Assembly (NCBI GenBank): GCA_016868055.1
Contig: VGHX01000017.1
Coordinates: forward strand, 1-45,078
Reading direction: 5' to 3'
Origin: Betaproteobacteria bacterium
Lineage (GTDB): Bacteria; Pseudomonadota; Gammaproteobacteria; Burkholderiales; Burkholderiaceae_D
Length of the DNA: 45,078 nucleotides
The position numbers and the translations under genes were made by a program. Numbering within the stretch: position 1 is the first letter of the stretch; the number at the start of each line of letters is the position of its first letter. Under the pieces are notes generated by a model, which was not told the DNA's origin, made no database searches, and saw only the letters and a list, made by a program, of their open reading frames with translations. Of the stretch, positions 570 through 43,271 are shown one piece after another.

Positions 570-1511
570 TCAGACCTCGAGGTTATCGATCAAACGGGTC
601 GAGCCGAGTTTGGCCGCTGCGAGTATGACCAGCGGTTGATGAGTTGCCAGATCACCCGCGGTTGGCGGCTGGAGATCGCTACGTTTTCTGATTGCAAGGT
701 AATCGGGTTGCCAGCCTCGTTGACCTAGGCGCTCAATCGCACTTTTCTCCAGCAGCGATACATCGAGATCGCCGCTGCGGAGCGCGTCAGCGACCCGATT
801 CAGTTCACGAAACAGGGTGGGAGCCTCGGCACGTTCATGCTCAGATAAGTAACCGTTGCGCGACGACAGCGCCAAGCCATCCTTGGCACGAGCGACCCGA
901 TTCAGTTCACGAAACAGGGTGGGAGCCTCGGCACGTTCATGCTCAGATAAGTAACCGTTGCGCGACGACAGCGCCAAGCCATCCTTGGCACGGTAGGTCT
1001 CAGCGGCTACGATCTCGGTAGGTAAAGCAAACTGCCTCGCCATATTCCGTACAACCATCAGCTGCTGATAATCTTTTTTGCCGAACACCGCAACACGCGG
1101 CTGTACGCAAGAAAAGAGTTTCATCACAATCGTAGTGACACCGGTAAAAAACCCGGGTCGGAAGTGCCCTTCAAGAATATTACCCAGATCATCCGGGGGC
1201 TGAATCCGGAACTCCTGGGGCTCGGGATAAATATCTTTTTCGGTTGGCGCGAACAGCACATATAAACCTTCTTTCTCGAGCTTCTCAACATCGGCGGCGA
1301 AGGTGCGCGGGTACTTATCGAAGTCTTCGTTTGGACCAAACTGAAGACGATTCACAAATATCGATGCAACCACCGGGTCACCGTGCTTGCGCGCTAAGCG
1401 CATCAGCGACAAATGACCATCATGCAGATTACCCATAGTAGGCACGAAGGAAGTACGCAACTGGCCCCGCAGCTGGTCGTGAAGCTCTGCAATCGACGAG
1501 ATGATTTTCAT
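570..1511 (-). CDS. panC: Pantoate--beta-alanine ligase with internal 34-residue duplication
   Basis: PanC condenses pantoate with beta-alanine using ATP, the last step of pantothenate (vitamin B5) synthesis in the cytoplasm. The nucleotidyl-transferase fold is clear: [11 protein letters not shown] near residue 26 matches the HIGH-like motif, and [13 protein letters not shown] matches the family's KMSKS-like loop. At 313 residues it is 34 longer than expected, because a 102-bp block (789-890 and 891-992) is present twice in tandem and in frame. The duplicated peptide contains the DGLALSSRN active-site loop, so the encoded protein would carry two copies and is unlikely to fold normally. Without the extra copy the length is 279, normal for PanC. 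The gene follows scpA on the minus strand with a 67-base gap, an arrangement I associate with Burkholderiales. Identity is certain; functionality as written is doubtful. Confidence 0.93.
789..992. repeat. Perfect 102-bp tandem duplication inside panC
   Basis: Bases 789-890 and 891-992 are identical over all 102 positions. The length is a multiple of three, so the reading frame survives. There is no extended homology at the joint. This is one of eight such two-copy duplications in the window. Confidence 0.97.
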
Positions 1512-1578
1512 CGTGAATCAGTTTCGAAGGTGCCGATGGGTGCCCTTGTGGCGATCATTTCAGATCGGGCGCAGCGCA

Positions 1579-2406
1579 TCAGTTCGGCGAGTATGAGAGA
1601 CGCACATAGATAGGCGCAAATGCCTCGGCCTGCGTGATCTCGATCAGCGTTTCTTTTGCCAGCTCAAGCAATGCGATGAAATTCACCACCACTACCGGCA
1701 CACCCCGCGAGGTTTCGAACAAATCCTGAAACTCAATAAATTTAGCGTTTTGCAGCTTGCGCAAAATTTGCGTCATATGCTCTCGTACAGAAAGCTCTTC
1801 ACGCGTGATGGTATGCCTTTCGGTGAGCTTGGCGCGACGCAGTAAGTCATTCCATGCTGCTTGCAGATCAGCGATCTCGACATCCGGGAAGCGCGTCACC
1901 ACGGTCTGATCGATATATACCTGCGTGCGCACAAAGTCGCGCCCGACTTGTGGCAAGGTGTCGAGCTGAAACGCAGCCAGCTTGATCTGTTCATATTCCA
2001 GCAGCTTTCGCACCAGCTCGGCGCGTGGATCGAGCGCTTCCTGCTCGCCCTCGATCTTTTTAGCGGGCAGCAGCATGCGCGATTTAATCTCTATGAGCAT
2101 CGCCGCCATCAGCAGATAATCGGCGGCGAGCTCAAGATTGCGCTGACGTATATGCTCAATGTACTCCAGGTACTGCAGCGTCACCGCTGCCAGTGGAATA
2201 TCCAGAATATTGAAATTCTGTTTACGGATCAGATACAGCAACAGGTCGAGCGGACCCTCGAAGGCCTCGAGAAAAACCTCAAGTGCATCAGGTGGTATGT
2301 AGAGATCGTTGGGCAGTTTGAATAGCGGTTCGCCGTACAATTTGGCAAACGCTACACCATCAATCACTTCCTGTGATTCGTTGTTGATCTCGGTACTGGT
2401 TTCCAC
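1579..2406 (-). CDS. scpA: Segregation and condensation protein A
   Basis: ScpA is the kleisin subunit that bridges the SMC heads in the bacterial condensin (SMC-ScpA-ScpB) and acts in chromosome compaction and segregation. The 275-residue protein has the typical N-terminal segment (FEGPLDLLLYLIRKQ at about residues 49-63), followed by NILDIPLAAVTLQYLEYI and the LAADYLLMAAMLIEIKSRMLLP helix that contacts SMC. The C-terminal winged-helix part includes a VREHM segment. The start is GTG at 2406, with taagg about 8 bases upstream formed by the stop codon of the preceding DUF3460 gene. That gene ends 9 bases before, so the two are almost certainly co-transcribed. scpB is not in the window. Confidence 0.93.
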   Translation of the reverse strand: METSTEINNESQEVIDGVAFAKLYGEPLFKLPNDLYIPPDALEVFLEAFEGPLDLLLYLIRKQNFNILDIPLAAVTLQYLEYIEHIRQRNLELAADYLLMAAMLIEIKSRMLLPAKKIEGEQEALDPRAELVRKLLEYEQIKLAAFQLDTLPQVGRDFVRTQVYIDQTVVTRFPDVEIADLQAAWNDLLRRAKLTERHTITREELSVREHMTQILRKLQNAKFIEFQDLFETSRGVPVVVVNFIALLELAKETLIEITQAEAFAPIYVRLSYSPN

Positions 2407-2415
2407 GTGATGGCC

Positions 2416-2631
2416 TTACTCGCTTTGGTATACATAGGCCTTTTGCTTGACCCGCGATTCCTGGGTGCGGCGCATTTCTTCCAGATCGATTTTTTGTTTA
2501 TCCCAAAGGCGGGCGCGACCGGCTAGCTGCTCGGCCTCGAGCGTGGGGTGGCTCTTCTTCAGCTCGGTGATAAAGCGGGTGACTTCGGAGACATACGACG
2601 CTTGTTTATTGAACAGTGGCATGGCGGGCAT
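2416..2631 (-). CDS. DUF3460 family small protein
   Basis: A short protein of 71 residues (68 if the second Met, MPLFNKQ, is used, which matches the usual family N-terminus). The body has the features I recognise as DUF3460: a SEVTRFITELKKSHP helix, an AEQLAGRARLWDK segment, and a basic tail rich in Arg, Gln and Lys ending VYQSE. No function is known. It sits between metG and scpA in the same direction, its usual place in Burkholderiales. Neither start has a clear ribosome site. The start and the 5' region lie inside the 51-bp duplication at 2601-2707, so the leader of this gene is present twice; the second upstream copy falls in the metG-DUF3460 gap. Confidence 0.85.
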   Translation of the reverse strand: MPAMPLFNKQASYVSEVTRFITELKKSHPTLEAEQLAGRARLWDKQKIDLEEMRRTQESRVKQKAYVYQSE

Positions 2632-41619: not shown

Positions 41620-41623
41620 GCCC

Positions 41624-43078
41624 TCAGCCGGAGCTGCGAATCACAAACTGCCGCCCGACTTCAGCCCACGCCGCGGTCTCTTTCGATAGCCAGTACGCCA
41701 AGGTCGGGTGATGCAAGCTGATCGCTTGGCCGAGCGTGAGCTCTATGCGCGATCGAACTGATAGCCGAACAGGTGCCAAGGCGGGGTCGATGCGTGCATG
41801 CATCAGCAGCACGCCCAAGCGCAGCGAGACAATTGCGCGCGTGATGTCAAGATCAGTGAGCGCGTCTTGCACCTTGCGCAGGTTGCCTTTCTGCGCCAGC
41901 AACAGTATCGATAGCAAGTGCTGCTCGTGCGAGGTGAAGCCGGGCAAGTCAGCGTTCAATGCGAGATAAGCACCATGCTTGTGAAATCCGGTGTGCGAAA
42001 CCGCCATTCCAACTTCATGCAGCTTGCCGGCCCAACCCAGCATCCGCTCCAGCGCCCCATCCGGGGCTGTCTGACCATAGAGTGCCTTTGCACTGGCAGC
42101 TGCGCGGGCTGCGCGACCCTCATCCACGCCAAAACGTTTCATGAATCGTTTGACCGAGTCTTGTCGACGATCGCGTTTGCGCTGCCTGAGGTAAAGGTCC
42201 CAAAGCACGCCCATCCGCAAACCTGCCTCAACGGCGAGCAGCGACTTTAGGCCCAGCTCTTGTGACAAGCCAAGCATGACCGACAGCCCACCCAGTACCA
42301 CGCTGGCTCGTTCCGGGCGTACGCCTATCAGGTCAAGCTTACTGATTCGTCCTGCAGAAAGCAGACGGTCGCGCAGAGCGAGTAATCCCTTCACAGACAG
42401 CTGCCCATCGGCGAGATCATTTTTTTCGATCAGTTCGGCAAGGGTGCGCAGCGTGCCAGACGAGCCGTAGCCGACTTCCCACAGCCGTGGGTGGAAGGGC
42501 GCCGTGCGATCTTCAAACACGCTACGCGCATACAGCACTGCTTCATCAAACGCAGATGCGCTGAGACGTTCACTGTCGAAGAACCGCATTGCGGAGGGCA
42601 CTGTGCCGATCGAAAATGACTCGACTTGCTCGACCTCTGCGCCTTGACCCAGGATCAGCTCAGTCGAGCCGCCGCCGATATCGATCACCAAGCGGCGCTC
42701 GAGCGGCAGGTTGAGCGTGGATGCCACGCCCATGTAAATCAAACGGCCTTCCTCTTCGCCCGAAATGATTTCAATCGGATAACCGATTGCCCTTTCGAAA
42801 AGTGGCAGAAAGCTCGACGCGTTACGGGCCACGCGTACCGTGTTCGTGGCAACCACGCGTATTCCCGATAGCGGCGTAGATTGGAGAATCTGAGCAAATC
42901 GCGTCAGACAAACGACAGCACTTTGAATCGACGCTTGGCTTAGGTTTCGCCTGCTATCGAGCCCGGCGCCGAGCCGGACTGGTTCGCGTGCGCTGTTAAT
43001 GATGCGGATGCGGTCGCCGTCAAAGGTCCCGATATGTAATCTGAAACTGTTCGAGCCGAGATCAACGGCGGCAAGCAT
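41624..43078 (-). CDS. ppx: Exopolyphosphatase (Ppx/GppA family)
   Basis: Ppx removes terminal phosphates from polyphosphate; GppA relatives also hydrolyse pppGpp. The 484-residue protein (ATG 43078, MLAAVDLGSNSFRLHIG) has the sugar-kinase/Hsp70/actin fold: phosphate loop 1 DLGSNSFRL, ISGEEEGRLIYMGV, phosphate loop 2 VIDIGGGSTEL, and a C-terminal HD-like helical part. The open frame runs 23 codons further upstream in Arg-rich sequence that I take as untranslated. Tail-to-tail with glnG with a 4-base gap, so the two transcripts must overlap or share a bidirectional stop that I could not identify. Confidence 0.92.
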   Translation of the reverse strand: MLAAVDLGSNSFRLHIGTFDGDRIRIINSAREPVRLGAGLDSRRNLSQASIQSAVVCLTRFAQILQSTPLSGIRVVATNTVRVARNASSFLPLFERAIGYPIEIISGEEEGRLIYMGVASTLNLPLERRLVIDIGGGSTELILGQGAEVEQVESFSIGTVPSAMRFFDSERLSASAFDEAVLYARSVFEDRTAPFHPRLWEVGYGSSGTLRTLAELIEKNDLADGQLSVKGLLALRDRLLSAGRISKLDLIGVRPERASVVLGGLSVMLGLSQELGLKSLLAVEAGLRMGVLWDLYLRQRKRDRRQDSVKRFMKRFGVDEGRAARAAASAKALYGQTAPDGALERMLGWAGKLHEVGMAVSHTGFHKHGAYLALNADLPGFTSHEQHLLSILLLAQKGNLRKVQDALTDLDITRAIVSLRLGVLLMHARIDPALAPVRLSVRSRIELTLGQAISLHHPTLAYWLSKETAAWAEVGRQFVIRSSG

Positions 43079-43207
43079 GCGTGGGTGTCTCCGTCTGCTG
43101 GATAAAGCTTTTAATAATCTGCGCTCGATATGACGCCTCAATGACAAAACCAGGCGTCGTCGCTTAATCGCTACGGACCGGATTATCAGGCAAGAGTTCT
43201 ACCCATG

Positions 43208-43271
43208 TCATCAACTTGAAAAAAAACCTTCACACAATCTCATCAACTTGAAAAAAAACCTTCACACAATC
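43208..43271. repeat. Perfect 32-bp tandem duplication upstream of the porin gene
   Basis: tcatcaacttg, eight A residues and ccttcacacaatc at 43208-43239 recur exactly at 43240-43271. It lies 80 bases before the porin ATG, so a promoter element or leader could be doubled. Confidence 0.96.

What the first reader, a model, noticed from the sequence alone, without database searches (positions are those of the whole stretch)
789..43271. Eight exact two-copy tandem duplications scattered across the window
Perfect direct duplications, always exactly two copies and mostly abutting, occur at 789-992 (102 bp), 2601-2707 (51 bp + 5-base spacer), 14269-14322 (26), 22377-22426 (25), 23266-23323 (29), 24147-24230 (42), 33954-34065 (56) and 43208-43271 (32). 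None has a mismatch between copies, the lengths are all different, and the joints show at most one or two bases of homology. At least four damage or alter conserved genes. That density in 43 kb is far above anything normal. Unequal lengths argue against a simple fixed-k overlap artefact, but gap closing or read merging could still create it. If real, it points to a lineage with very frequent short tandem duplication, for example by fill-in and blunt joining of staggered breaks.
Basis: partly seen in the sequence, partly recalled or inferred. Interest (0 to 1): 0.8.

Follow-up and report, generated by a model that had tools for sequence, protein, structure and literature searches.

The report
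One contig with eight duplicated stretches
Eight short stretches of DNA are each written twice in a row in one piece of a bacterium's draft genome, but rarely in the rest of that genome that was sampled, so they are more likely an error in building that piece than a habit of the bacterium.

Summary
The eight two-copy duplications exist at the stated places; 7 of 8 are shown to be single-copy in the nearest relative. One is imperfect: at 2601-2713 the unit is 57 bp and copy 1 lacks one base near the joint. The window is a whole contig (C17) of a 2.7 Mb, 195-contig draft genome, probably Oxalobacteraceae. With one filter the window has 8 such duplications in 45 kb; 120 stretches of other contigs (2.08 Mb, about 77% of the genome) have 7; 1.66 Mb of relatives has 4. 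The neighbours C4 and C8 have none in 116 kb. Units of 10-24 bp are not enriched in C17, Ku was not found, and joints show chance homology. This speaks against a lineage-wide process and favours a contig-specific construction error (unmerged overlaps or chimaeric joins shorter than the inferred ~127-base graph word). Against it: the placement is milder to genes than random (P 0.0025 to 0.02; a first figure of 0.0006 used a wrong gene start), and C17 carries four other small frameshifts, as a real burst in one strain would explain. Reads would decide; none are on hand.

The parts
789..992 (.). Exact two-copy tandem duplication, unit 102 bp, inside panC (570-1511, minus strand): in-frame repeat of 34 residues including an SSRN motif; no other panC found in the genome
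2601..2713 (.). Two-copy duplication, unit 57 bp with one base missing in copy 1 near the joint; non-coding, between metG (ends 2718) and scpA (1579-2406)
14269..14322 (.). Exact two-copy duplication, unit 26 bp, non-coding, between the PgaA-like gene and the next gene
22377..22426 (.). Exact two-copy duplication, unit 25 bp, AT-rich non-coding
23266..23324 (.). Exact two-copy duplication, unit 29 bp, in a DUF3429 gene (minus strand, start 23392): frame shifted about 33 codons from the start
24147..24231 (.). Exact two-copy duplication, unit 42 bp, in frame in an alpha/beta hydrolase gene (23472-24389, minus)
33954..34065 (.). Exact two-copy duplication, unit 56 bp, about 23 codons into prfC (release factor 3); the RF3 domains downstream are whole
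43208..43271 (.). Exact two-copy duplication, unit 32 bp, AT-rich non-coding, upstream of a porin gene
44912..45078 (.). Contig end: overlaps the start of contig C8 for 167 bp with two differences, the last 126 bases identical (read as sign of a de Bruijn graph with words of about 127 and of two haplotypes)

Best explanation
The eight duplications are most likely not in the chromosome of the organism but were made when this one contig was built. Shown: in the 77% of the genome sampled, the excess is confined to contig C17, whose sequence is otherwise normal for the species. Inferred: adjoining fragments, or chimaeric reads, whose ends shared 25-102 bases (less than the assembler's word of about 127) were joined end to end without merging the shared part, so each shared part is written twice. 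The missing base beside the joint at 2601 would be an error near such an end.
For: Confinement to one assembly unit: 8 in 45 kb of C17 against 7 in 2.08 Mb of 120 stretches of other contigs, and 0 in the 60 kb of C4 and 55.7 kb of C8 fetched, which flank it in G008's order; all eight falling in C17 among these three has P = 4e-5. C17 is the same species as the rest: about 83% identity to G008 and like composition, similar codon-position pattern of changes. A length floor: exact repeats with units of 10-24 bp are at background in C17 (1 seen) while units of 25-130 bp are about 40-fold denser (7 in 45 kb against 8 in 2.08 Mb). All units are below the inferred graph word of ~127. Joint homology is 0,0,0,0,1,1,2 bases at the seven clean joints, what chance gives by my arithmetic. 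No Ku. The only panC found carries its SSRN stretch twice. Duplicated overlap at scaffold joins is a described assembler error (PMC7111523, passages read).
Against: Random joints should break genes more often: 1 frame-breaking hit beyond 25 codons (2 with no margin), P 0.0025 to 0.02 depending on the margin and on the 2601 unit, and 4 of 8 non-coding, P 0.016. Four further small frameshifts in C17 genes (4 of 38 against 1 of 151) are not what this error makes. No Ns mark the joints. Nothing explains why only C17 of the contigs sampled was built differently. Base-level quality of C17 looks normal. No joint edge lies among strong folds, though two sites are at the AT-rich extreme.
Confidence: 0.63

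Rival explanations
1. Real, recent burst: C17 comes from one strain in the sample (or one chromosome segment) in which staggered breaks or template switching made 25-100 bp tandem duplications, later filtered by selection against broken genes.
For: Placement milder to genes than random (P 0.0025 to 0.02; 4 of 8 non-coding, P 0.016); four other out-of-frame indels in 38 comparable genes of C17 against 1 of 151 elsewhere, Fisher P = 0.006; the C17 end differs from C8 by two substitutions in 167 bp, so at least two haplotypes were present.
Against: Other contig ends differ in the same way, so C17 is not marked as a special strain. TRF shows no diverged long-unit two-copy duplication in C17; its only older-looking long-unit array is 36388-36477. 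Short duplications are not enriched. Total small-indel density is not raised. No Ku. Doubled SSRN stretch in the only panC found. Tandem duplications were almost absent among structural variants of E. coli mutation-accumulation lines (PMC10292909, passages; size cut-off not checked).
Confidence: 0.22
2. The letters of this contig were altered after assembly (polishing, gap filling, merging of two assemblies, or editing of the record).
For: Explains confinement to one record with normal base quality.
Against: No direct sign; the genome store, which is the window's own source and so not independent, holds the same letters. Random edits also predict more broken genes.
Confidence: 0.1
3. Ordinary background of short tandem duplications, clustered by chance.
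For: Such two-copy repeats do occur at about 2 to 3 per Mb in this genome and its relatives.
Against: 0.15 expected, 8 seen; P about 6e-12.
Confidence: 0.01

Closest known systems
Local assembly error with duplicated overlap at a join (Chen et al. 2020, PMC7111523; passages read)
   Same: Flanking fragments that overlap are joined and the shared part appears twice
   Different: There the join carries Ns; here there are none, and in the part sampled only one contig is affected
Short non-homologous tandem duplications by fill-in of staggered breaks and end joining (recalled; Ku/LigD in bacteria)
   Same: Two exact abutting copies, no microhomology beyond chance, variable unit
   Different: No Ku found in the genome; confined to one contig; no short units in excess
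Minisatellite / VNTR arrays of the same genome (mostly 9-15 bp units, three or more copies)
   Same: Tandem direct repeats
   Different: Those have short units and more copies and lie on many contigs

Membership tests
Assembly error: unmerged overlap | Confined to assembly units rather than to the genome | tested here: met
   8 in C17; 7 in 2.08 Mb elsewhere, about 77% of the genome
Assembly error: unmerged overlap | Unit shorter than the graph word | tested here: met
   25-102 bp against ~127, itself inferred from contig-end overlaps
Assembly error: unmerged overlap | Ns at the join | tested here: not met
   No N in the window
Assembly error: unmerged overlap | No read spans both copies | not testable with these tools
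   No reads on hand
Assembly error: unmerged overlap | Placement blind to gene structure | tested here: inconclusive
   Observed placement is milder than random, P 0.0025 to 0.02; joins that favour intergenic DNA would weaken this
Lineage-wide tandem-duplication process | Duplications spread over the genome | tested here: not met
   (77% of the genome)
Ku-dependent end joining | Ku gene present | tested here: not met
   PF02735: no match in a genome rated 99% complete; of 14 control genomes the search found Ku in 1, B. subtilis
Transposon target-site duplication scars | Fixed unit length | tested here: not met
   Units 25 to 102 bp
Minisatellite arrays | Three or more copies | tested here: not met
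   Two copies at all eight sites

The most novel reading that the evidence does not exclude
C17 belongs to a strain, or a chromosome segment, that recently underwent a burst of Ku-independent, homology-free 25-100 bp tandem duplications (about 180 per Mb, some 50 times the background of its own species), with selection having already removed most of those that break genes.
Probability: 0.18. Interest if true: 0.75.

Novelty: not a real feature. Interest (0 to 1): 0.27.

Why it matters
If it is an artefact, it is an error that leaves base-level quality normal, passes completeness checks and silently alters genes (panC, DUF3429, prfC) in a draft genome that stands for a species; counting exact two-copy repeats per contig would catch it. 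If real, it would be a bacterial strain with an unusual way of joining DNA.

Tried and rejected
Lineage-wide process: set aside by counts in 120 stretches of other contigs. Foreign or contaminant contig: set aside by identity to G008, composition and gene order. General low base quality of C17: not seen in codon-position counts. Hairpin-caused breaks: no strong folds at the joint edges. A near-identical single-copy version of the region in the same bin: none for window 13000-25000, nor for the whole window in the 100 stretches then held, contig-end overlaps apart. Ku: none. Target-site duplications and VNTRs: see membership test. Literature searches for the artefact and for bacterial short tandem duplications: listings only, except passages of PMC7111523 and PMC10292909. 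They gave one described assembler error of this shape and, among the listings seen, no paper on a contig like this.

Limits and a correction: the comparison with G008 covered only the parts of G008 fetched, 38 window genes and 151 others with a usable match (on fewer stretches, gave 5 of 38, one of them caused by a duplication, against 1 of 138). The relatives' 1.66 Mb (118 loci) hold some regions twice and 4.7 kb of G000 itself. The gene model of the placement test was drawn by hand. In one search the DUF3429 start was set too far inside, which gave P = 0.0006; on checking, moved it to 23392 and gave 0.0025 to 0.02, and I lowered the real-burst odds (0.25 to 0.22) and raised the error odds (0.60 to 0.63). 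The filter (unit 24 bp or more, exact run of 18 or more, gap up to 6) also admits two elsewhere-sites with short runs (L178, L228). In one search rows elsewhere with units of 25 bp or more include multiples of shorter units. The word size of ~127 is inferred from contig-end overlaps, not stated anywhere.

Full report
What is there. The window is the whole of contig C17 of G000, a draft genome of 2,709,013 bases in 195 contigs. TRF and a direct scan confirm eight two-copy tandem duplications. Seven are perfect. At 2601-2713 the unit is 57 bp and copy 1 lacks one T five bases before the joint. Against the nearest relative G008 (contig length equal to that of VERA01000001.1, ZLKRG28, so probably that record) the DNA is colinear at about 83% and single-copy at seven sites; at 24147 the alignment ends inside copy 1 and the point is not settled.

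Genes hit. Site 789 adds 34 residues in frame to panC, repeating a stretch with SSRN; the Pfam match falls into two pieces that overlap in the profile (2-205 and 170-267), with no other panC in the genome. Site 24147 adds 14 residues in frame to an alpha/beta hydrolase. Site 23266 shifts the frame of a DUF3429 gene about 33 codons from its start. Site 33954 lies about 23 codons into prfC, whose domains downstream are whole. Sites 2601, 14269, 22377 and 43208 are non-coding.

Is it the genome or the contig? With one filter (unit 24 bp or more, exact run of 18 or more, gap up to 6, no inner period) the window gives 8; 100 stretches of other contigs give 6 sites and 20 more give 1, together 7 in 2,075,862 bases, about 77% of the genome; 118 loci, nearly all of relatives and partly redundant, give 4 in 1,663,513 bases. 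Expected in 45 kb: 0.15; P about 6e-12. In G008's order C17 lies between C4 and C8; the first 60 kb of C4 and all of C8 have none. C17 has identity to G008, GC and tetranucleotide profile like the rest and a similar codon-position pattern (12,018 codons, p12/p3 0.284, against 47,119 codons, 0.313). So C17 is the same species with normal base quality, and the excess ends where the contig ends.

Shape of the excess. Elsewhere in the stretches held, exact repeats of about two copies number 40 with units of 10-15 bp, 4 of 16-19, none of 20-24, and 8 of 25 or more (arrays of shorter units included). In the window: 1 of 10-24 and 7 of 25 or more; the imperfect site is not counted. A mutational process of the slippage type should raise the short ones too (inference). 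Joint homology is 0,0,0,0,1,1,2 bases at the seven clean joints, what chance gives by my arithmetic. Several contig ends of this draft overlap each other by 127-128 exact bases, or by longer stretches with one to three differences; shorter exact overlaps (84 to 125) occur too. C17 overlaps C8 by 167 bp with two differences, the last 126 bases identical. I read this as a de Bruijn graph with words of about 127 and a sample with more than one strain. All duplicated units are shorter than that word.

Reading. A de Bruijn graph breaks where no whole word is covered, and the two ends then share any length below the word. If such ends are placed side by side without merging, each shared part is written twice. 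Chen et al. 2020 describe duplicated overlap at scaffold joins, with Ns, as a known local error (PMC7111523, passages). Here Ns are absent, so a later gap-closing or merging step, or chimaeric reads, must be assumed. This is inference. It explains exact copies, two copies only, variable lengths, chance homology and the confinement.

Results against this reading. With the eight units placed at random, one or no frame-breaking hit beyond 25 codons of a start comes up in 0.25% to 1.0% of trials, two or fewer with no margin in 0.4% to 2.2%, and four or more non-coding in about 1.6% (the 0.06% rested on a wrong gene start). C17 also has four other frameshifts against G008, at about 14900, 16110, 33190 and 44840 (5, 2 and 2 bases fewer and 5 more), in 38 genes, against 1 in 151 genes elsewhere, Fisher P = 0.006. 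Total indel density is not raised (52 + 50 in 42.9 kb against 176 + 155 in 150.6 kb). Placement and frameshifts suit a real burst in one strain. Against a burst stand the missing Ku, the doubled SSRN stretch in the only panC found, the lack of diverged long-unit two-copy duplications in C17 (one older array, 36388-36477, has about three copies), and the rarity of tandem duplications in E. coli mutation accumulation (0 in 67 wild-type lines, 1 in 37 mutS lines; PMC10292909, passages; size cut-off not checked). I put the construction error at 0.63 and the real burst at 0.22.

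Noticed in passing
window 1-56 and G000:C4:1-51 (L104): 15-bp tandem arrays sit at the ends of both contigs; similar 15-bp arrays lie at the starts of C10 and C54, so short minisatellites seem to break this assembly.
   Followed up: partly
window ~14900, ~16110, ~33190, ~44840: Four frameshifting indels of 2 or 5 bases relative to G008, in a PgaA-like barrel gene (weak Pfam match), a family 2 glycosyltransferase, a GNAT-domain gene and a porin; the first two are neighbours and may mark a decaying exopolysaccharide operon.
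   Followed up: partly
window 44912-45078 and L110 1-167; also L198/L220, L194/L210, L109/L245, L234/L244: Contig ends overlap, often by 127-361 bp with one to three differences, which suggests strain mixture in the source sample and a graph word of about 127.
   Followed up: partly
window 32237-32303: Match to Rfam RF02278, Betaproteobacteria toxic small RNA, just over the gathering score (51.1 against 50).
   Followed up: no
L187 68-327 (C52), L203 12360-12439 (C9), L175 19075: Background two-copy duplications of about 131, 40 and 39 bp elsewhere in the genome; the 131-bp one is next to a contig start.
   Followed up: no
window 36388-36477: A 28-bp unit in about three diverged copies (75% match), the only older-looking array with a long unit in the TRF list of the window.
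   Followed up: no
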